Part shown: piece after piece, positions 1 to 39,266 of the stretch
How the letters are laid out: each line of letters starts with the position of its first letter
Numbering within the stretch: position 1 is the stretch's first letter
Source of the DNA: Arthrobacter zhangbolii
GTDB lineage: Bacteria; Actinomycetota; Actinomycetes; Actinomycetales; Micrococcaceae
Length of the DNA: 64,000 bases
Direction: 5' to 3'
Assembly (NCBI RefSeq): GCF_022869865.1
Contig: NZ_CP094984.1
Coordinates: 1,550,001 to 1,614,000, forward strand
Notes under the pieces: model-generated
Seen by the model: only the letters and a program-made list of their open reading frames with translations
What the model was told of the DNA's origin: nothing
Database searches by the model: none
Made by a program: the position numbers and the translations under genes

Positions 1-1043
1 CCAACCACGCCCACCTTGGTGACCGGGCGGGCAAGCTTTTTGTCCGGAGCGCCGGCGGGACGCTTGCCGCGCTTCTGGACCAGGTCCAGGAACGCGTAGA
101 CGGTGGAGCTGAACTGCGGCGTCTGCATCAGTTCGGCCAGGGCGTCGCACTCGGCTTCGCGGGATTCCTCGCGCGTCCAGGTTTTGCCGTTCTCCAGCAG
201 GTCCAGGACCTTGGCCGGCGCCGGTGCGGCGTTGGAGGTCTTGGCCTCCACAAAGGCGCGGCCCTTGGCGACGGCGGCGTCCCATGCCTCGCCCACGGCA
301 GCCGGCTCGACGGCATTGGGCCGCTGTACCTGCTCCTCGCCGGTGATGACGCGGGCGGCCCAGGTGAGGGACTGCTCCAGGAAGTCGGCCGGTTCGAACA
401 GGGCGTCGGCGATGCCCAGGTCATAGGCAGCCTTGCCGTTCAGGGTGCGGTTGTTGCTCAGCGGGTTCTCGATCATCACCTTGACGGCGTTCTCGGGCCC
501 GATCAGGCGCGGCAGCAGGTAAACCCCGCCCCAGCCCGGAACCAGGCCGATGAAGGCCTCGGGCAGGGAGATCGCACCGGCGCCGGTGGACACCGTGCGG
601 TAATCGGACTGCAGGGCAATTTCCAGCCCGCCGCCCAGTGCCACACCGTTGATGAAGGCGAAGCTGGGCACACCCAGGCTGCCCAGCTTGGCGTACACGT
701 CGTGTCCCAGGCGGGCCATGGCGTAGCCGGCTTCGAAGTCGGAGATGCCCTTTACCGCGGACAGGTCGGCACCGGCCACCAGGTAGAACGGTTTGCCGGT
801 GACGCCGACGCCGACAATCTCGCCGGCCTCGGCGCGCACCTTGAGCTCGTCCAGCTTTTCACCGAGTTCGAGCAGGGTGTTCGGGCCCAGCGTGGTGGGG
901 CGGGAGTGGTCGACGTCGTTGTCCAGGGTGATCAGCGCGAAGGTGCCGGCGTTGCCGGGCAGCTGGACGTCCGAGACATACGAGTGGGTGACAACCTCGG
1001 TGGGGAAGAGGCCCGCGAGGCGCTGGTAATCGGGAGCTGACAT
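1..1043 (-). CDS. fadB: 3-hydroxyacyl-CoA dehydrogenase / enoyl-CoA hydratase, FadB/FadJ type (partial, 3' end outside window)
   Basis: Multifunctional beta-oxidation enzyme, expected to hydrate enoyl-CoA and oxidise the 3-hydroxyacyl-CoA with NAD. The visible 347 codons hold an N-terminal crotonase domain, with the oxyanion-hole region VALGGGLEIALQSDY and the downstream SLPEAFIGLVPGWGG stretch. A charged linker follows, and the Rossmann domain begins (KVGVVG) exactly at the window edge. The ATG at 1043 overlaps the TAA of the upstream thiolase by one base (TAATG), so translation is probably coupled. Together with the thiolase it forms a classic fadA-fadB pair acting on long-chain acyl-CoA in the cytosol. 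The C-terminal dehydrogenase part cannot be checked here. Family is secure; chain-length preference is unknown. Confidence 0.93.
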   Translation of the reverse strand, partial: MSAPDYQRLAGLFPTEVVTHSYVSDVQLPGNAGTFALITLDNDVDHSRPTTLGPNTLLELGEKLDELKVRAEAGEIVGVGVTGKPFYLVAGADLSAVKGISDFEAGYAMARLGHDVYAKLGSLGVPSFAFINGVALGGGLEIALQSDYRTVSTGAGAISLPEAFIGLVPGWGGVYLLPRLIGPENAVKVMIENPLSNNRTLNGKAAYDLGIADALFEPADFLEQSLTWAARVITGEEQVQRPNAVEPAAVGEAWDAAVAKGRAFVEAKTSNAAPAPAKVLDLLENGKTWTREESREAECDALAELMQTPQFSSTVYAFLDLVQKRGKRPAGAPDKKLARPVTKVGVV

Positions 1044-29490: not shown

Positions 29491-29497
29491 TCACATC
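29444..29497. repeat. 23-bp direct repeat at the 3' end of the V-ATPase operon
   Basis: CCACATCTCCGCACCGTCAC plus three bases occurs at 29444-29466 and 29475-29497. The second copy spans the stop codon of the subunit D gene, so the repeat duplicates its 3' end. Confidence 0.85.
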
Positions 29498-30090
29498 AGC
29501 CCGGCAGCCCAGCGCAACCGCAGGCTTTCCTCCAGCTCCTGCTCCGCTATGCGCTGCTCGATCGCCTTCAGCTGGTCCTCGAGCAGCGGAATCCACCGGT
29601 TCTCCACGGCCCGCTGCCGGGTCCGGGTAGTTGCCAGTTCCTCCGAGACCAGCAGCAGTGCCCGCTGGACGGCCGCAGCGGAGACTGCCGCCTCCAGCGC
29701 TTCCCGGTGGGCTGCGGCTGCATATGCCAGGGCCGAACTGCCCCCGGCCGGCGGCGCAGACGGGACGGTACACGTGGCTTCCTCGGGATAGGAGATGCCC
29801 ATGGCCCCGCCCCACAGCACGCTGACCCGGGCGTCCTGCAGCGGGGCCGCAGCCAGCAGGCGGTCCGCGCCGTCCAGTGCCGTGGTCCGCCGCAGCCACA
29901 CAGATGCTTCACGGGCCGCTGCTTCCCAGGCCAGCCGTGCGGCGTCGGCCCGCTCAGCCATCCCCTCGATGGAGCGCTGCAGGATCCGCTGCTTGCGGTC
30001 CAGCAATTCGGCCCCGCGCCGGGCGGTCGCGAGCCGTCGCTGCACCTCGGACCGTTCGGCCCGGCTGCCTCCGGAGCGGAACCCGCTCAC
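29491..30090 (-). CDS. ntpD: V/A-type ATPase subunit D (central stalk)
   Basis: 199 residues from the GTG at 30090 (13 bases after the subunit B stop). A long helical coiled-coil protein: N-terminal RSEVQRRLATARRGAELLDRKQRILQ and C-terminal VENRWIPLLEDQLKAIEQRIAEQELEESLR are the two rotor-shaft helices typical of subunit D, with a short beta segment in the middle. With F it forms the rotating axle inside the A3B3 head. Last gene of the nine-gene operon. Confidence 0.88.
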   Translation of the reverse strand: MSGFRSGGSRAERSEVQRRLATARRGAELLDRKQRILQRSIEGMAERADAARLAWEAAAREASVWLRRTTALDGADRLLAAAPLQDARVSVLWGGAMGISYPEEATCTVPSAPPAGGSSALAYAAAAHREALEAAVSAAAVQRALLLVSEELATTRTRQRAVENRWIPLLEDQLKAIEQRIAEQELEESLRLRWAAGLM

Positions 30091-30103
30091 CGCGCCGGTC
30101 CCG

Positions 30104-31516
30104 TCACAGCCGCGCCCCGCCCTCAGGCCCGGGCAGGTACCGGTCAAGGAACTCCGCCGAAAGCATGGTCAGCTCCCGGCGTGGCAGCAGCGACAGTGCC
30201 TGCCACGCCAGGTCCAGGGTCTGCTGCAGGGTGCGCAGCTCGTCCCGGCCCTGGTTGAGCAGCTCCCGTTCCACCACGGTCCGGAACTCGATGTAGGCCT
30301 TGTCGGTTTCGCTGAGCGCCGCAGCTCCCACCAGTTCGGCCAGTTCGGAGGCGGAGCGCGCGCGGGACATGGCGGAGAGGATCTGGGCGGCGACGTCGAG
30401 GTGGTCCTCACGGGTACGCCCCTTCCCGGCACCGCTGCGCATCAGCCGGGACAGGGAGGACAGGACATCCACGGGCGGGTAAATACCGCGGGCGTCAATG
30501 TCGCCGTCGAGCACTACCTGCCCCTCGGTGATGTAACCGGTGAGGTCCGGCACCGGATGGGTGATGTCCCCGGCGGGCATGGTCAGCACCGGCACAATGG
30601 TGACCGAGCCTTCGCGGCCCTTAACCCGCCCGCAGCGTTCGTACAGGGTGGCCAGGTCACTGTAGAGGTAGCCGGGGTAGCCGCGGCGGGCCGGTATTTC
30701 CCGCCGCGCGGCGGAGACCTCGCGGACTGCCTCCGCGTAGCTGGTCATGTCCGACATCACCACCAGCACATCCGAGCCGTGGTCATAGGCCAGGGACTCC
30801 GCGACCGTCAGCGCGATCCGCGGGGTGAGAATGCGTTCAATCACCGGATCATCAGCGGCGTTGAGCAGCAGCACCAGCTCTCCTGCGGCGGAGCGTTCCT
30901 CCAGCCGGTCGCGGATGTAGGCAATGTCCGCATGGGTCATGCCCATGGCCGCGAACACCACCCGGAAGGCCCGCCCCGAGGAGGTGGCGGCCTGGGCGGC
31001 GATCTGCGTAGCCAGGGTCAGGTGCGGCAGGCCCGGGATGGAGAAGATCGGCAGTTTCTGTCCGCGGACCAGGGTGGTCAGGGCATCCACCACGGAAATG
31101 CCGGTGATGACCGGATCCTGCGGCGGTTCCCGGAAAACGGGGTTCAGCGGCCAGCCGCCCACTGGAGCGGTTTCCTCGGCTGTAACGGGAGGGCCGCCGT
31201 CGAGCGGTTCCCCCCGGCCGTTGCAGACCCTGCCGAGCCACCCGTCTCCCACGGGCACGGAAAGCGGGCGGCCCTGGAAGCGCACTTCCACCCCGCCCAG
31301 CGCCATGCCCTCGGTGCCTTCGAACACCTGCAGGGTGGTTTCATCCCCGTCGATCTCCAGTACCAGGCCGTGCCGCTGCGCCCCGCCGTCCACCGAGACG
31401 GTGGCAAACTCGTCCCAGCCCACGCCGTCGGTGTCGCCCAGGACCAGCAGCGGGCCCCGGAGCTCGCGTACGTCGCTGTGTCCCACCCGGGCCGTGGGGC
31501 CGGTGTTGTTAGCCAT
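30104..31516 (-). CDS. ntpB: V/A-type ATPase subunit B (non-catalytic)
   Basis: 470 residues. It has the subunit B nucleotide-binding fold with a degenerate P-loop (FSIPGLPHLTLATQIAAQA) and the conserved FAAMGMTHADIAYIRDRLEE and VLVVMSDMTSYAEAVREVSAARREIPARRGYPGYLYSDLA regions. It alternates with A in the hexameric head. The ATG at 31516 (GGGAG upstream) overlaps the end of subunit A by 8 bases, indicating coupled translation. Confidence 0.95.
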   Translation of the reverse strand: MANNTGPTARVGHSDVRELRGPLLVLGDTDGVGWDEFATVSVDGGAQRHGLVLEIDGDETTLQVFEGTEGMALGGVEVRFQGRPLSVPVGDGWLGRVCNGRGEPLDGGPPVTAEETAPVGGWPLNPVFREPPQDPVITGISVVDALTTLVRGQKLPIFSIPGLPHLTLATQIAAQAATSSGRAFRVVFAAMGMTHADIAYIRDRLEERSAAGELVLLLNAADDPVIERILTPRIALTVAESLAYDHGSDVLVVMSDMTSYAEAVREVSAARREIPARRGYPGYLYSDLATLYERCGRVKGREGSVTIVPVLTMPAGDITHPVPDLTGYITEGQVVLDGDIDARGIYPPVDVLSSLSRLMRSGAGKGRTREDHLDVAAQILSAMSRARSASELAELVGAAALSETDKAYIEFRTVVERELLNQGRDELRTLQQTLDLAWQALSLLPRRELTMLSAEFLDRYLPGPEGGARL

Positions 31517-33428
31517 GGGCTGCTCCCGCCGCTGGTTGCACTGTGGATGGCTGGTCAAGATCCGCTGTTAGCCGGCGCAGGAACTCCCGGGCGCGCTGCC
31601 GGACTCCCTCGGCGTCGGTGGGGCCCGTGTCCTCGCGCAGGCGGAGGATGGGGGAGAAATCGTAGCGCTCGACGTCGGCCGGCGGCACTCCGCGTCCCAC
31701 CATGGCCTGGCAGGTATCCACCACATCCAGCACCGTCTGCAGCAGGGCGGCACCCTTGTCCGCGGAGCTGTACCCGTCATTGGGACTGAGCGCATTCTGC
31801 AGCAGCACCCCGTCGCGCAGCAGGCGCCCGCCCAGCAGGACCATCTGCTCATGGCCGGGCAGCGAGGAGGCGCCGATGATTTCCGCGAGCGCGGTCAACC
31901 GGTCCGCCTCGGCCAGCAACAGCGAGGCCCGGGCCCGCCGCGCGGTCCACTGCGGGTCTCCGTGGGCGGAGTACCAGCGGCCCAGCGACTCGGCGTCCCG
32001 GGAGAAGGAACCGCGCCAGGAGACGGCGGGGTAGTGCCGTGAGTAGGCCAGGTCCCGGTCCAGCAGCCAGAGGGTACGGACAAAACGCTGGGTACCGGTG
32101 GTCACCGGTTCGCTCATGTCCCCGCCGGGAGGGGAGACGGCGCCAATCACGGTAACCGACGCCGTCGCCCCGCCCAGGGTCCGAACCCGGGCGGCCCGCT
32201 CGTAGAATGCCGCCAGTTCGCTGGCCAGGGAGGCGGGATAGCCCTCCTCGGCGGGCAGGTCCCCGTTGCGGTTGGCGAATTCGCGCAGGGCTTCCGCCCA
32301 GCGGGAGGTGGAATCGGCAATCACCACGGCGTCGTAGCCCATGTCGCGGAAGAACTCGGCAACGGTAACCCCGGAGGCAATGGACGCCTCCCGGGCCATC
32401 ATCGGCATGTTGGACGTATTGGCAATGATGACCGTACGGTCAATGAGCTTGCCGCCGGTACGCGGATCATCCAGACCCGAGAGCCCGTCCAGCACGTCCG
32501 CCATCTCATTGCCGCGCTCGCCGCAGCCCACGTAGACAATCACGTCCGCGTCCGACCATTTGGCAATCTGCTGCAGCGTCAGCGTTTTGCCGGTACCGAA
32601 TCCGCCGGGGACGGCTGCCGCCGCACCGCGCGGAACCGGGAAGAGCAGATCCAGCACACGCTGTCCGGTCTGCAGTGGGACGAGATCGGTAATGCGCTCG
32701 CCGAAGGGGCGGGGCCGGTGCACCGGCCAGCGCTGGGCCAGGGTAACCTCCACTCCGCCCACCCGGGCCACCGGGTCCAACGGTCGGACTTTTCCCTGCG
32801 CCAGCCAGGTGATTTCCCCGGAGACCGACGGCGGCGCCATCACCCGGAATTCAACTGTGCCTGCCGTGGGGACAATACCCAGGACCTGCCCTGCCCGGAC
32901 CGTGTCCCCGACCGCCACGGAGGGGGTGAAGTCCCATTCGGTTTCCAGCACCGTCGGATCTTCAGTGGAACTCTGCCGCTGCTGGGTGAGCCAGAGCGGG
33001 GCGGACGAGAGCGGGCGGAGCAGCCCGTCAAAAACGGTGCCGAGCAGTCCGGGCCCCAGCAGGCCCGCAAGCTGGTGCCCGGTCCGTTCCACCGGGTCAC
33101 CGTTTTTCAGCCCGCCGGTGTACTCATACGCCTGGACAGTGGCAGTATCCCCGTTGATGGACACCGCCTGGGCGGCAATACCTTCGGGACCCACATTGAC
33201 CACTTCAAGCATGGTCAGGCCGGGCAGGCCGCGGATTTCAACCAGCGGTCCGCTGACCCGTGTGACCACACCCGTTTCGCCCCGTGCCTGCCCGGCTGCC
33301 GCTCCTCCCGCCGCCGACGCCCCGGTCCCCGCCCCCGCCGCCGCCCCCGCCGACGTCGCCCCGGTCCCGGCAATGTCCCTGGCCGTACCGGCGCTGCCGG
33401 TACCCGGTGTCCTCACACGTCTTCCCAT
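31509..33428 (-). CDS. ntpA: V/A-type ATPase catalytic subunit A
   Basis: 639 residues. Walker A GGFGTGKTLTLQQIAKWSDAD, then VYVGCGERGNEMADVL, catalytic-subunit bulge domain, and Walker B region DAVVIADSTSRWAEALREFA. Hydrolyses or synthesises ATP in the V/A-type rotary machine. Starts with an unusual Gly/Ala/Thr-rich stretch of about 50 residues (GTGASAAGGAAAGQARGE) before the conserved GVVTRVSGPLVEIRGL beta-barrel, which is longer than usual. Its ATG overlaps the preceding subunit gene by 16 bases. Confidence 0.95.
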   Translation of the reverse strand: MGRRVRTPGTGSAGTARDIAGTGATSAGAAAGAGTGASAAGGAAAGQARGETGVVTRVSGPLVEIRGLPGLTMLEVVNVGPEGIAAQAVSINGDTATVQAYEYTGGLKNGDPVERTGHQLAGLLGPGLLGTVFDGLLRPLSSAPLWLTQQRQSSTEDPTVLETEWDFTPSVAVGDTVRAGQVLGIVPTAGTVEFRVMAPPSVSGEITWLAQGKVRPLDPVARVGGVEVTLAQRWPVHRPRPFGERITDLVPLQTGQRVLDLLFPVPRGAAAAVPGGFGTGKTLTLQQIAKWSDADVIVYVGCGERGNEMADVLDGLSGLDDPRTGGKLIDRTVIIANTSNMPMMAREASIASGVTVAEFFRDMGYDAVVIADSTSRWAEALREFANRNGDLPAEEGYPASLASELAAFYERAARVRTLGGATASVTVIGAVSPPGGDMSEPVTTGTQRFVRTLWLLDRDLAYSRHYPAVSWRGSFSRDAESLGRWYSAHGDPQWTARRARASLLLAEADRLTALAEIIGASSLPGHEQMVLLGGRLLRDGVLLQNALSPNDGYSSADKGAALLQTVLDVVDTCQAMVGRGVPPADVERYDFSPILRLREDTGPTDAEGVRQRAREFLRRLTADLDQPSTVQPAAGAAHG

Positions 33429-33936
33429 AGTCTGCGCACCTCCCGCGCGTTTTCTTCCAGGGCCTGTTCGGCCAGGGAGGGCAATGACAGGTCAATCCGG
33501 CGTGATCCGGCCGTGCCGGTGACGCCGCCCCTGGGGCTTTCCGTCACCGAAGCCATCGGCCCCAGCAACCGGTCCGCCTGTGCCGTCAGCCGCCGCAGGA
33601 TCTGCGGATAGCGCGGGTCCCGGCGAATTTCGCGGGCCTGCTGCATCACTTCGGCAGTGAGTAGGGAGTGCAGGTGCTCCTGCTCGGCCAGGACGCTCCG
33701 CCGTGCTGCCCGGCGGGCCCGGGCCGAGGACGCCACGGCATCCGCCCGCGCCGCCTCGGCGCCCTCGCGCGAGGCAGTGGCCCGGATGTCCGCGGCTTCG
33801 GCGCGGGCGGCGGCGAGGATCTCCTCCGCCTGCCTCCGTGCTTCTGCCTCTGTGCGGGCGGCGTTTTGTGCGGCCTCACGGTCCAGCGCCCGGCGAACCG
33901 GTTCCAGTGCGGTTTCGGCGCCGCGCGGCAGCCGGG

Positions 33937-33940
<4 letters not shown>
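33413..33940 (-). CDS. V/A-type ATPase subunit E-like (peripheral stalk)
   Basis: 175 residues from the ATG at 33940, which overlaps the stop of the upstream F gene (ATGA). Highly charged Ala/Arg/Glu helix (ALDREAAQNAARTEAEARRQAEEILAAARAEAADIRATA) in the first half, then a small C-terminal domain. This matches subunit E in layout and operon position (between F and A), although sequence conservation of stalk subunits is low. Expected to pair with G/H as stator. Confidence 0.78.
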
Positions 33941-35927
<1,987 letters not shown>

Positions 35928-35941
<14 letters not shown>

Positions 35942-36923
35942 CGAGCACCTCGCTTCCGCCACCGCCGGAGCCCGCCGCAGCCAAGGCGGCCCGCACCCGC
36001 CAGGCATCAGCGGCAAGCACTGCCGCCGCGCCCAGCACCACTCCGGGTCCGGGGAGACCGGCGCGCAGCAGGGAGAAGCCGTCCGTTTCCACGCGGCCTG
36101 CCAGGGCAGCTTCGGCCCGCCATAATTCCCGGGGATCCTGAACTCCCGCCAATGCCTGCCCGGCCGCCGGGCTGAGGGCCAGGAGAAGTTCCGGCAGGGA
36201 GGACGCTTCCGCCCACCCGGTGCCGATCAGCGGACGCAGCAGGGATACCTGGCGCTCGGTTGGCCGGCCACCGTCCACCAGCAGCAGCCGGGCCGCCAGC
36301 AGGACGGCAGCGGCAACTGCCCACGGCCGCGCCGCCGGGGCAGCGGAGGCCACCCGGCGCAGCCACACTGCCGCCAGGGTGTCCGGCAGGGTCACGCTCA
36401 GGCTGTCGGCCGGTCCCGGACTGCCCCAGGGTGAGGCGGCGAGCATGGGTTGGAGGGTATCCAGGGATTCGGCGGTCCTAAGCCGTGGCCAGGCCGTGGC
36501 GAGGCCGCCAAGGTCAAAAGGGGTAGAGGCGCTGGTGCCGGAATGCCCGGAATGCCCGGAAGGTCCGGGCGTCCGGTCCGGTGCCTCGTCCGGCGGGGTG
36601 CCTGCGGAGAGCGCGGCGGCAAGGGCCACGATGTTATCCGCTTCGAACCGCGCTGCGACGGCGCGGACAAGCGGGGTGCCGCTGGCCGGCAGCCAGCCCG
36701 CCAGCACACGCAGCTGCCACAGCACGGTACGCCGGGTAGCCAGCTGGGCCTCCTGCAGGGTCCGGGCGGCAGCCAGCTCCCCGGCGTAGACGGACCCGGC
36801 GAGGGCCTCCACTGCAGCGGGCAGGTTCGGCAGGGTGGACAGGCTGCGGCAGGCACCGGCGCCGAGCCGGCGCTGTGCCATGGACCGTCCCCGGACCGTC
36901 GCCGCCACCCAGTCCGCCTGCAT
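35928..36923 (-). CDS. ntpC: V/A-type ATPase subunit C/d (AC39-like)
   Basis: 331 residues, mostly helical. Opening WVAATVRGRSMAQRRLGAGACRSL and later repeated helical pairs (LPAAVEALAGSVYAGELAAARTLQEAQLATRRTVLWQLRVLAGWLPASG) are consistent with the funnel-shaped AC39/C subunit that couples the rotor to the K ring. Assigned by composition and place between G/H and I; the sequence is diverged. The start ATG overlaps the G/H stop by one base (TGATG). Confidence 0.78.
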
Positions 36924-37366
36924 CAGCCGCTGTCCGTTCCGCGTCCCAGCAGGACCTGAACCAGGTCCGCCACGATGGCGGAAGCGAGTTCGGGCACCCT
37001 GGATTCACCCCTGCGCCGCAACTCGGCGGCTTCCTGCCTCGCCTCGGAAAGCAGAGCCTCGTCCTGCCGGGACACCTCGGCCGAGACCTGGGCAGCGGCC
37101 TCGGCACGGGCCGCGGCACTGTCCATCCGTGCCTGTTCCAGAAGGGCGGCGGCCTGGCGGCGGGCCGCAGCGACGCTCTCGCGTGCCTGTTCGGCCGCGT
37201 TCCCGGCGGTAGCCTGCGCTGCCTCAATCTGCGGGTCGAGGGCTTCGAAGACGGGAATCAGTTCAGCGGCCGGACCCTCGTCATCCTGGGCCGGAACACC
37301 GGCAGGGCCGGCGGGCCCCGGTGCCCCGACGGGCCGGAAGCGGTCCAGCAGGCTGTTGCGTGCCAT
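36923..37366 (-). CDS. V/A-type ATPase subunit G/H-like (peripheral stalk)
   Basis: 147 residues. A Pro/Gly-rich N-terminus is followed by a long coiled-coil (ELIPVFEALDPQIEAAQATAGNAAEQARESVAAARRQAAALLEQARMDSAAARAEAAAQVSAEV) and a short C-terminal helix. Fits the G/H stalk helix that pairs with E. First gene of the operon, with GGGAGG 7 bases before its ATG. An EncFtn-like gene ends 88 bases upstream on the same strand. Confidence 0.78.
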   Translation of the reverse strand: MARNSLLDRFRPVGAPGPAGPAGVPAQDDEGPAAELIPVFEALDPQIEAAQATAGNAAEQARESVAAARRQAAALLEQARMDSAAARAEAAAQVSAEVSRQDEALLSEARQEAAELRRRGESRVPELASAIVADLVQVLLGRGTDSG

Positions 37367-37454
37367 GCGGTACCTCCCTGTTGTAAAGGAGTGACTTGTA
37401 CAGGAATGGACGTGTGCAGGATCCGATTTATGCAGCAGCGGACGGGTACAGGAC

Positions 37455-37775
37455 TCAGTCCCCGGTGGCCCGGGCCTCGGAATCCTCGCCGTGCTGCACT
37501 ATGTCCCCGTCGGTGAACAGAATGCCCCGCGCAATTTCCCGCCAGAGCGGGGTGCGGCGCAGCAGGAATTCCAGTTCCATGCTGAAGTGCTTGAATTCCT
37601 CGCCGAGGGAATCGTGCATGATGGCGCGCGACTCGGCGTCGGGTTCCACGGCCATCCGCTGTACGTACCAGCCAATGGCTTCGGCTTCCTCGCTGAGGCT
37701 GGCGCACATGCGTGCGAAGGTTCGGGTTTCGGCGGGAAGTTCGGACGGTGGCTCGTGGTACTGCTCGGTGCCCAT
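37455..37775 (-). CDS. encapsulated-ferritin-like (EncFtn) protein
   Basis: 106 residues. ATG at 37775 with AGGAG six bases upstream; the frame is open further but the extra N-terminus is not supported. The core matches the encapsulated ferritin family as I remember the Rhodospirillum rubrum protein: EEAEAIGWYVQR (residues 29-40), DSLGEEFKHFSMELEFLLRR (55-74) and W...LFTDGDI. Glu30, Glu60 and His63 correspond to the ferroxidase residues Glu32, Glu62, His65, and Trp36 to Trp38. Expected to oxidise Fe(II) as an antiparallel dimer and normally sits inside an encapsulin shell. Neither a shell gene nor an obvious C-terminal targeting peptide is seen (the tail is QHGEDSEARATGD). Confidence 0.82.
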   Translation of the reverse strand: MGTEQYHEPPSELPAETRTFARMCASLSEEAEAIGWYVQRMAVEPDAESRAIMHDSLGEEFKHFSMELEFLLRRTPLWREIARGILFTDGDIVQHGEDSEARATGD

Positions 37776-37819: not shown

Positions 37820-37839
37820 GGAACGGTTTTCCCCGTTCC
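37820..37839. promoter_or_regulatory. inverted repeat upstream of the EncFtn-like gene
   Basis: GGAACGG (37820-37826) and CCGTTCC (37833-37839) with a 6-base TTTTCC centre, 45 bases before the EncFtn start. Could be a regulator site or the map terminator (on the minus strand it lacks a T run). Confidence 0.45.
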
Positions 37840-37924
37840 TCGAGGTTACGTTTGGGCCGGGAGCGGCACAATGGTCCCCGGACCCAACGGCGCCGGGAGG
37901 GCTGAGCTCTTTGGGGGAGCGGTA

Positions 37925-38695
37925 CTAGCGGCGGGGCAGGGTCAGGATCTCGGCGCCGTCGTCGGTGATGGCAATGGTGTGCTCGCTGTGCGCGGTCCGG
38001 CTGCCGGTGGCGCTGCGCAGGGTCCAGCCGTCAGGATCCATGGCCAGTTCCGCGGTGTCGGCCATAATCCACGGTTCAAGGGCGAGGAGCAGCCCGGGGC
38101 GCAGCTTGTATCCTCGACCGGCGCGGCCGGTGTTGGGGATGTGCGGGTCCTGGTGCATGGTGGAGCCGATACCGTGTCCGCCGAAGTCGGTGTTGACCGG
38201 GTAGCCGGCAGCGCTCAGGCTGGCGCCGATGGCATGGGAAATGTCGCCGATCCTGGCACCCGGACCGGCGGCTGCGATGCCGGCTTGGAGCGCCTGTTCG
38301 GTAGCGCGGATCATGGCGGTACTCGCCGGATCCGGTGTTCCGACCACAAAGCTGATGGCCGAATCCGCGGCGATGCCGTTTTTGATGACGGCCAGATCCA
38401 GGCTCACCAGGTCGCCGTCGTCCAGCGCATAGTCGTGCGGGAGGCCGTGCAGGACGGCGTCGTTGACGGAGGTGCAGATGTAGTGGCCGAAGGGCCCGCG
38501 CCCGAAGGACGGTGCGTAGTCCACATAGCAGGACTGCGCTCCGGCGTCCCGGATCATTTCCGCCACCCAGCGGTCAATCTCGAGCAGGTTCGTGCCCACC
38601 GTGCTGCGCTGCTTCATGGTCTGCAGGATCTCGGCCACCAGTGCTCCGGTAACCCTGGCTCGCGCGATTTCGTCCGGGGTCAGAATCTCGATCAT
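37925..38695 (-). CDS. map: type I methionine aminopeptidase
   Basis: 256 residues. The metal ligands of the pita-bread fold are recognisable: VSLDLAVIKNGIAADSAISF (two Asp), GHGIGSTMHQDPHIPN (His), LALEPWIM (Glu) and SEHTIAITDDG. Removes N-terminal Met after deformylation, and so complements the def and fmt genes at 53-55 kb. Probably its own transcript or linked to the downstream EncFtn gene (149-base gap). Confidence 0.95.
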   Translation of the reverse strand: MIEILTPDEIARARVTGALVAEILQTMKQRSTVGTNLLEIDRWVAEMIRDAGAQSCYVDYAPSFGRGPFGHYICTSVNDAVLHGLPHDYALDDGDLVSLDLAVIKNGIAADSAISFVVGTPDPASTAMIRATEQALQAGIAAAGPGARIGDISHAIGASLSAAGYPVNTDFGGHGIGSTMHQDPHIPNTGRAGRGYKLRPGLLLALEPWIMADTAELAMDPDGWTLRSATGSRTAHSEHTIAITDDGAEILTLPRR

Positions 38696-38717: not shown

Positions 38718-39266
38718 TCAACGGGCCAGCCTCCCGTACGCCGAGGCAAAGTGGATCAGGGGGTCCGATTCGTCGTCGGCGGAAGCCCGGCGTCCCATCG
38801 ACACTACCTCTCCGACGATCAGTTCATGCGTAGCCGCCGTGGTTACCGAGGTGGTACGGACCTCAAACCAGGCGATGGCGCCGTCAATAACGGCAGCACC
38901 TGTTTCCGGGCCCCTGCCGTAGTCCACCTGGTTCAGTAGTCCCTCCAGGGGCGAGCCGGGGCTTGCCAGCCAGTTCGCGGTGCCGCGCAGCCGCGCCGGC
39001 AGCAGGCTCAGCGCCCAGCTGCCGGCGTCGAGCACCGCCTCCGCGATGCGTGCCTCGGCGTACAGGCTGACCAGGAGGGTGGGCGGATCATAGGAGACGG
39101 AGAGGAAACCGCTGACCGTGGCCGCGTAGTCACGCCCGCGCAGCCGGGTGGAGACCACGCCGACGCCGGAGGCAATGTCCGCGCTCAGCTCGCGGTAGCG
39201 GTCAACCACCTCGTCCGGGACGTCCGGTCCTTCGACGGCGTCTCCCGGGAATACCCCGTGCTCCAA
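38718..39266 (-). CDS. flavin reductase family protein
   Basis: 182 residues with the flavin-reductase-like split barrel: GVGVVSTRLRGRDYAATVSGFLSVSYDPPTLLVSLYAEARIAEAV and a closing VGEVVSMGRR. Binds FMN and supplies reduced flavin to a partner monooxygenase, or acts alone. The start is TTG at 39266, only 9 bases after the MsrB stop and in the same frame, so it is probably translated from the msrB transcript. Confidence 0.85.
   Translation of the reverse strand: MEHGVFPGDAVEGPDVPDEVVDRYRELSADIASGVGVVSTRLRGRDYAATVSGFLSVSYDPPTLLVSLYAEARIAEAVLDAGSWALSLLPARLRGTANWLASPGSPLEGLLNQVDYGRGPETGAAVIDGAIAWFEVRTTSVTTAATHELIVGEVVSMGRRASADDESDPLIHFASAYGRLAR

What the first reader, a model, noticed from the sequence alone, without database searches (positions are those of the whole stretch)
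37455..37775. EncFtn-like ferritin next to a V-type ATPase operon, without a visible encapsulin
The ferroxidase residues Glu30, Glu60, His63 and Trp36 match the family, yet no shell gene is near and the C-terminus lacks an obvious targeting peptide. Same strand as the V-ATPase genes, 88 bases upstream. A stand-alone EncFtn, or one tied to an ion-pumping ATPase, would be new to me.
Basis: partly seen in the sequence, partly recalled or inferred. Interest (0 to 1): 0.72.

Follow-up and report, generated by a model that had tools for sequence, protein, structure and literature searches.

The report
Shell-less EncFtn ferritin in Arthrobacter
A small iron-oxidising ferritin of the kind normally packed inside a protein shell is here encoded without any recognisable shell or packing tag, as it is in many other actinobacteria that lack the shell, and its neighbouring ion-pump genes are a local arrangement of one genus.

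Summary
Window 37455-37775 (-) encodes a 106-aa EncFtn-family protein (PF22277, 69.4 bits) with all ferroxidase ligands, 88 bases upstream of a nine-gene V-ATPase operon. The one-contig genome has no family-1 encapsulin, no SrpI-like match and no second EncFtn.

New result: targeting tail and shell go together. Of 80 related loci (best 80 of 111), 44 are tailed, all in genomes with encapsulin. Of 33 tailless ones in searched genomes, 28 have none, and 4 of the other 5 carry a second, tailed EncFtn beside the shell. In a phylum sample, 14 of 14 readable EncFtns from encapsulin-less genomes are tailless and 9 of 9 from encapsulin genomes tailed, 3 of these 9 already in the first set. Selection is strongly purifying.

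The V-ATPase link is no functional evidence: one genus only (24 of 29 genomes), and one is present without the other in 5 of 29. A shared conserved promoter suggests co-transcription.

Best reading: a soluble, shell-free ferroxidase ring, the 's-FLP' class named in a 2024 review that left encapsulation open.

The parts
37455..37775 (-). shell-less EncFtn (s-FLP type), 106 aa, ferroxidase ligands E30, E60, H63 with W36/Y37, no targeting peptide
37843..37871 (-). sigma70-type promoter TTGTGC-N17-TAACCT, 96 nt before the EncFtn ATG; found in 15 of 15 genus loci examined (window and 14 loci) and in 3 of 3 genus genomes without intact EncFtn
   Evidence: hexamer consensus recalled; chance 0.0017 per 160 nt in single-base shuffles
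37820..37839 (-). dyad GGAACGG-N6-CCGTTCC just after the -10 box, candidate operator; AACG-N6-9-CGTT at the same place in 8 of 15 genus loci
36923..37366 (-). putative V-ATPase stator subunit (G/H- or B-like coiled coil), first gene of the V-ATPase operon
   Evidence: sub-threshold PF06188/PF00430/PF16999; position
35928..36923 (-). V-ATPase subunit C (AC39-like)
   Evidence: PF01992 22.0 bits, below cut-off 29
34619..36016 (-). V-ATPase subunit I
   Evidence: PF01496 60.5 bits
34167..34622 (-). V-ATPase subunit K (rotor ring)
   Evidence: PF00137 59.9 bits
33937..34170 (-). putative V-ATPase subunit F
   Evidence: PF01990 16.5 bits, below cut-off
33413..34054 (-). putative V-ATPase subunit E
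   Evidence: PF01991 14.8 bits, below cut-off; position
31509..33428 (-). V-ATPase subunit A
   Evidence: NF003220 638.6 bits
30104..31558 (-). V-ATPase subunit B
   Evidence: NF003235 599.7 bits
29491..30147 (-). V-ATPase subunit D
   Evidence: PF01813 96.7 bits

Best explanation
The gene encodes a shell-free EncFtn. Shown: the EncFtn family and predicted fold, all ferroxidase ligands, no targeting peptide, no recognisable encapsulin in the genome, strong purifying selection. Inferred: like its structural relatives it forms dimers and a D5 decamer ring on binding iron, oxidises Fe(II) at the dimer interface, and works free in the cytosol. As it has no enclosed cavity and no shell, it cannot keep a mineral core itself, so it most likely lowers reactive Fe(II) (and perhaps O2 or H2O2) and passes Fe(III) on, possibly to the one PF00210 ferritin of this genome (Dps-like by my reading). 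It is probably transcribed from its own sigma70-type promoter as first gene of a unit that reads on into the V-ATPase genes in this genus. That shared transcript is an accident of gene order and not a shared pathway.
For: Family, ligands, fold. No encapsulin match over cut-off and a single EncFtn in a 3.46-Mb contig. Tail/shell rule: 44 of 44 tailed loci in encapsulin genomes, 28 of 33 tailless in genomes without. Phylum sample: 14 of 14 and 9 of 9 (6 of the 9 new). Genus: 26 of 26 EncFtns without tag, 0 of 29 genomes with PF04454. dN/dS 0.004-0.091 for the window against 13 genus loci. One PF00210 protein over cut-off. Shell-less EncFtns of deep lineages lie beside rubrerythrin, superoxide-reductase and ferritin ORFs. 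V-ATPase and EncFtn occur apart in 5 of 29 genus genomes.
Against: No activity, oligomer state or expression was measured. Five tailless EncFtns lie in genomes that do have an encapsulin or a fragment of one, where packing by mixed assembly cannot be excluded. A shell of a family not covered by PF04454 or PF19307 would be missed; the PF19307 control reached its cut-off in none of 14 control genomes, so that negative is weak. The 14 encapsulin-less phylum genomes are 77-97% complete, so a shell could be missing from single assemblies. On the tree only 4 supported independent tail changes exist; none goes against the shell, but p = 0.125. One gene copy of the genus (L154, the same as L013) is frameshifted. 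Hand-over to Dps is inference only.
Confidence: 0.72

Rival explanations
1. EncFtn serves the V-ATPase: it is a dedicated partner, for example iron handling coupled to membrane acidification or ion pumping.
For: Same strand, 88-bp gap, D subunit 7.5-8.2 kb away in 24 of 24 genus genomes that have both; promoter shared and still there in 3 of 3 genus genomes without intact EncFtn.
Against: Only one genus; 2 genomes have EncFtn without V-ATPase and 3 have V-ATPase without intact EncFtn (one with a 29-codon remnant); of 10 V-ATPase genomes outside the genus 9 have no EncFtn and one has it on another contig; no association across the rest of the family (Fisher p 0.53).
Confidence: 0.05
2. It is cargo of a shell after all: a cryptic targeting sequence in the short C-terminus (as suggested for s-FLPs, 'LFTD..') binds an encapsulin or another capsid-fold protein.
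For: PMC11202242 (section 3 and Table 2 passage read) leaves this open and lists a putative s-FLP peptide.
Against: No family-1 encapsulin in this genome or in any of 29 of the genus; no SrpI-like match here (weak control). The stretch in question (window 86-97, LFTDGDIVQHGE) has its counterpart in tailed EncFtns that carry a separate SLGIGSLK tag, so it belongs to the common domain.
Confidence: 0.08
3. A degenerating leftover of a lost encapsulin system without function.
For: Shell and tail are absent; 3 genus genomes lack an intact gene and one further copy is frameshifted (L154).
Against: dN/dS 0.004-0.091; ferroxidase ligands invariant in the in-register tailless rows; found in 26 of 29 genus genomes.
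Confidence: 0.06
4. The EncFtn fold was re-used for something other than iron oxidation, for example metal or H2O2 sensing, or as an iron donor.
For: EncFtn alone oxidises but does not store iron (PMC5012862, passages read), so a free one may have another job; whether O2 or H2O2 is the preferred substrate is unknown (PMC7762939, passages read).
Against: Ligand set, entry-site glutamates and Tyr37 conserved.
Confidence: 0.09

Closest known systems
s-FLP / NE0167 of Nitrosomonas europaea (PDB 3k6c), 'short FLPs' of PMC11202242
   Same: About 95-106 aa, EncFtn fold, same ferroxidase motif, no targeting peptide
   Different: Other phylum, 39% identity in the structural alignment; whether NE0167's genome has a shell was not tested here
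EncFtn of Rhodospirillum rubrum Rru_A0973 (5da5) and Haliangium ochraceum (5n5f), encapsulin cargo
   Same: Fold and ferroxidase centre; TM 0.88-0.92 by target length
   Different: Those carry a C-terminal SLGIGSLK-type peptide (Table 2 of PMC11202242); this one has neither peptide nor recognisable shell in its genome
Tailed EncFtn + encapsulin pairs of other Micrococcaceae and Microbacteriaceae (e.g. L052, L045, L030)
   Same: 74-80% identical in the matched stretch
   Different: Tail with the tag, 132-143 aa in all; encapsulin gene directly downstream
V-ATPase operons of other Micrococcaceae (L123-L129)
   Same: Same subunit set and order
   Different: No EncFtn in the 7 stretches read, one of which (L127) begins 133 bases before the first subunit gene; no TTGT..-N16-18-TA...T promoter in the 200 nt before the match start in the 6 tested

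Membership tests
EncFtn-like family (PF22277) | Profile match over the curated cut-off | tested here: met
   69.4 bits, cut-off 27
EncFtn-like family (PF22277) | Ferroxidase ligands E32, E62, H65 with W38/Y39 (Rru numbering) | tested here: met
   E30, E60, H63, W36, Y37
EncFtn-like family (PF22277) | Two long antiparallel helices plus short C-terminal helix | tested here: met
   predicted helices 15-43, 47-74, 76-85, 92-104; Foldseek to 5da5, 5n5f, 3k6c
EncFtn-like family (PF22277) | Metal-dependent D5 decamer and ferroxidase activity | not testable with these tools
   needs protein
Encapsulated ferritin (encapsulin cargo; TIGR04535) | C-terminal targeting peptide of LxIGSL type | tested here: not met
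   absent; 74.2 bits to TIGR04535, cut-off 125
Encapsulated ferritin (encapsulin cargo; TIGR04535) | Encapsulin in the same genome | tested here: not met
   PF04454 best 13 bits, under its cut-off; PF19307 none at E <= 1, weak control
s-FLP (short EncFtn of PMC11202242) | EncFtn domain of about 95-110 aa without long disordered tail or targeting peptide | tested here: met
s-FLP (short EncFtn of PMC11202242) | Decamer in crystal (3k6c) | not testable with these tools
   only a monomer was modelled
V-ATPase accessory protein | Conserved neighbour of V-ATPase genes across relatives | tested here: not met
   one genus only

The most novel reading that the evidence does not exclude
Shell-free EncFtn is a recurrent, independently functioning iron-oxidation system. 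In several actinobacterial lineages the ferroxidase ring and the encapsulin shell have parted, the tag being absent in every shell-less genome read here, and the naked ring works in the cytosol in iron/oxygen defence, feeding Fe(III) to Dps or ferritin or to an unknown acceptor. 'Encapsulated ferritin' would then be one lifestyle of a family that also lives free.
Probability: 0.5. Interest if true: 0.62.

Novelty: new member of a known kind. Interest (0 to 1): 0.48.

Why it matters
[quoted passage not shown] The tail/shell rule found here says that in Actinomycetota they mostly cannot be: of the tailless ones read, most are in genomes with no recognisable shell. That makes an open question directly testable (what does a ferroxidase ring do without a cage?) and names strains of Arthrobacter, Leifsonia poae, Subtercola lobariae and Cryobacterium in which to test it by one gene deletion. 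Genomes that hold both a tailed and a tailless copy (L045/L038, L050/L053) allow an internal comparison.

Tried and rejected
Rejected: a V-ATPase partner; a hidden tag in another frame or downstream (window scanned in six frames, none); a second EncFtn elsewhere in the genome; a DtxR/IdeR box in the 300 nt upstream (best 10 of 19 positions, shuffles mean 10); a conserved neighbour of tailless EncFtn outside the genus (20 loci; apart from ORFs overlapping the gene itself, no listed neighbour cluster holds more than 3 of them; clusters under 3 tailless and 8 tailed loci were not listed, and several loci are cut by contig ends).

Inconclusive: single or multiple origin of the tailless state. AU tests did not reject one clade for 34 tailless rows (p 0.091) or for 32 of them without L059 and L080 (p 0.34). 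A wider tree needs 8 changes, 4 forced by supported branches, with few columns and an unsettled bootstrap. Independent-pair test: 4 pairs on supported branches, p 0.125. Residue contrasts between tailless and tailed rows (strongest at positions 3, 28, 38, 67, 88) were not interpreted; two rows in that count (L082, L067) start late and are out of register, which gives the single odd letters at ligand positions.

Rows dropped or missing: one search kept the best 80 of 111 confirmed relatives. L040 (cut by contig end) and L076 (frame runs over unknown bases into the encapsulin) are unclassified in the tail count; the tail pattern was written after seeing the proteins. Ten loci (L040, L048, L051, L055, L061, L064, L067, L068, L073, L079) were left out of the whole-genome encapsulin search; the nine tailed ones have encapsulin in the locus. 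L047's genome was not held. Of 52 phylum genomes with a PF22277 match, only the 25 over 40 bits were taken (own genome and 24 fetched); 27 weaker ones (26-38 bits) were not read, and two of them (G731, G806) have their match beside an encapsulin by coordinates. L187 gave no hit with my profile. L193, L194 and L195 are, by contig number and length, the same loci as L071, L062 and L077. L013 and L040 were left out of the trees; L184, L185 (short) and L193-L195 (repeats) out. In one search further dN/dS values against six loci outside the genus were 0.059-0.200 for four and not computable for two.

Papers: of PMC11202242 section 3, part 2 of the reference list and search passages were read; of PMC5012862, PMC8346489 and PMC7762939 passages only; other hits were seen as search listings with abstract beginnings. 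Giessen and Silver 2017 and He 2019 are not held, so an earlier genome survey of shell-less EncFtn there cannot be excluded.

Full report
What is there. The minus strand at 37455-37775 encodes a 106-aa protein that is a clear member of the EncFtn-like family PF22277 (69.4 bits, cut-off 27). phmmer against the PDB gives Rru_A0973 (E 1.9e-13), Haliangium EncFtn and NE0167 of Nitrosomonas. The AlphaFold model from a 29-row alignment has pLDDT 92, and Foldseek places it on Rru_A0973, 5n5f and 3k6c with TM 0.88-0.92 by target length and 34-41% identity in the rows shown. Among the 29 aligned sequences, window included, tailed and tailless, E29, E30, W36, Y37, E60 and H63 are invariant and E32 nearly so.

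No shell. The genome is one contig of 3.46 Mb. Its best PF04454 encapsulin match is 13 bits (cut-off 24.3), there is no SrpI-like PF19307 match (weak control, over its cut-off in none of 14), and there is one EncFtn only. One further protein passes the PF00210 ferritin cut-off, 165 aa. I take it for Dps from its length and motif, read by eye from the DNA; no call tests that label. No targeting-peptide core occurs in the six frames of the window.

Tail and shell go together. A scan of genome contigs gave 111 relatives, of which the best 80 were kept, at 65-98% identity. By a targeting-peptide pattern, 44 are tailed, 34 tailless and 2 unclassifiable. Encapsulin sits in the locus with 43 of 44 tailed and 0 of 34 tailless copies; the one other hit is the unclassified L076. 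The 44th tailed genome (L033) has one elsewhere. Whole-genome searches covered the genomes of 33 of the 34 tailless copies: 28 have no encapsulin and 5 have one (L032, L038, L044, L053, L078). In 4 of those 5 a second, tailed EncFtn lies beside the shell gene (L157, L045, L050, L161; for L032 and L078 the genome was matched by contig numbers, lengths and coordinates). In the fifth (L044) the encapsulin hit is a fragment at a contig end and only one EncFtn was found.

Second sample. I then drew 366 genomes from the phylum. 52, own genome included, match PF22277, 25 of them over 40 bits; encapsulin status came from the same 366. Of the 24 fetched, 23 gave a readable protein. All 14 from encapsulin-less genomes are 60-106 aa as read, without a tag. 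All 9 from encapsulin-bearing genomes have a tail with a tag, 5 by pattern and 4 by eye (SLNIGAL, SLRIGSL, SLGIGDL, SLGIGG). Three of the 9 (L193-L195) repeat loci of the first set, so 6 tailed and 14 tailless are new. Both states occur in two deep EncFtn branches that are separated with full support. The tail needs 8 changes on the best tree and at least 4 over supported branches. A formal pair test has only 4 pairs: on average 3.8 go with the shell, none against, p 0.125. The strength therefore lies in the two samples and not in the tree. AU tests do not reject a single tailless clade within the closer set (p 0.091).

Reversal. L074 (Microbacterium sp. STN6) is tailed and beside an encapsulin although nested among tailless rows with support. 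The tag can therefore probably be regained, or the domain exchanged.

Function is kept. Window against 13 genus loci: dN/dS 0.004-0.091 with dS 0.52-1.84. 26 of 29 genus genomes hold the gene, and none of the 26 carries a tag; one copy is frameshifted (L154), which may be an assembly error. Several have a longer C-terminus without a tag (up to 126 aa, L131).

The V-ATPase. In 395 family genomes, EncFtn is in 52, encapsulin in 37 and V-ATPase subunit D in 37. In the window's genus (29 genomes) the numbers are 26, 0 and 27, with both EncFtn and V-ATPase in 24, always 7.5-8.2 kb apart. Outside the genus (366 genomes), 26 have EncFtn, 25 of them with encapsulin; 10 have V-ATPase; one has both, on different contigs. 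Three have the V-ATPase but no EncFtn or a 29-codon remnant (L118, L120, L119). Seven V-ATPase stretches read outside the genus show no EncFtn, though one of them (L127) starts only 133 bases before the first gene. So there is no sign of a functional tie.

Promoter. A TTGTNN-N17/18-TANNNT promoter lies 95-161 nt before EncFtn in 15 of 15 genus loci (14, L004; L013's start was inferred). Chance is 0.0017 per 160 nt in single-base shuffles, though the loci are related. The same promoter is present in 3 of 3 genus genomes without intact EncFtn, facing the V-ATPase genes, and was not found before 6 V-ATPase operons of other genera. The simplest reading is one promoter for both. This is inference; no transcript was seen.

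Clues to the role. Around shell-less EncFtn of deep lineages (about 3 kb on each side, 14 loci, some cut) there is a rubrerythrin-type ORF in 4 (L173, L176, L177, L178), a desulfoferrodoxin-type ORF in 6 (those 4 plus L175, L179) and a ferritin-type ORF in 3 (L173, L176, L178). These are BLAST clusters; Pfam confirmed L173's three ORFs and L179's desulfoferrodoxin. The first four loci share further neighbours and are related, so they are not independent. In the window's genus msrB is the nearest to third-nearest recognised gene upstream in the window and 14 of 14 loci. Of 11 shell-less genomes searched, 10 have a PF00210 match over the cut-off, but all 14 control genomes do too, and in G743 the match is the rubrerythrin by its place. 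These point to iron/oxygen defence without proving it.

What is known. PMC11202242 names the short form s-FLP, notes that Giessen and Silver (2017, not held) first classed them as non-encapsulated, and leaves their encapsulation unclear, with a putative peptide LFTD(E/N)KPIAHE. In alignment A1 the corresponding stretch (window 86-97) is shared by tailed proteins that have a separate tag, so it is part of the common fold. My searches listed no paper that by title or abstract reports the tail/shell rule or an EncFtn/V-ATPase pair; most of the listed papers were not opened.

Verdict. Observation confirmed. Stand-alone reading supported and extended, ATPase reading not supported. A member of a known but little-characterised class, with new genomic evidence that the class is mostly shell-free in Actinomycetota.

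Noticed in passing
window 37820-37839: Perfect dyad GGAACGG-N6-CCGTTCC three bases after the -10 box; AACG-N6-9-CGTT at the same offset in 8 of 15 genus loci and in 0 of 3 genus genomes without intact EncFtn (chance 0.0014 per 40 nt in shuffles). Candidate operator of EncFtn.
   Followed up: partly
L173, L176, L177, L178, L175, L179: Shell-less EncFtn of deep actinobacterial families beside rubrerythrin, desulfoferrodoxin and ferritin ORFs.
   Followed up: partly
L074:10001-11221: Microbacterium sp. STN6: EncFtn of the tailless clade carrying a SLGIGSLR tail and an encapsulin match 63 bases after it; possible regain of tag and shell or domain exchange.
   Followed up: partly
window 38718-39266: Flavin-reductase-like gene (PF01613) near EncFtn in the window and matched in 7 of 14 genus loci (L003-L007, L009, L013), not in the others; a conceivable reductant partner for iron release.
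   Followed up: partly
window 37925-38695: M24 metallopeptidase (methionine-aminopeptidase type) between the flavin reductase and EncFtn; no tblastn match in the 80 loci.
   Followed up: no
window 37366-37455: Three imperfect copies of TCCTGYACNNGTC in the gap between EncFtn and the V-ATPase genes, seen by eye; not looked for in relatives.
   Followed up: no
L118 and L120 between msrB and the V-ATPase genes; similar in L010, L019: Long inverted repeat GCCCGCCGTACGCT...AGCGTACGGCGGGC followed by T's, overlapping the promoter; looks like the msrB terminator (seen by eye).
   Followed up: no
G496 (L186): Shell-less EncFtn genome with no PF00210 ferritin at E <= 1e-5 (94% complete assembly).
   Followed up: no
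window 29491-37366: V-ATPase subunit D is rare in this family sample (37 of 395 genomes) but nearly universal in this genus (27 of 29); the subunit I gene is short, 465 aa.
   Followed up: partly
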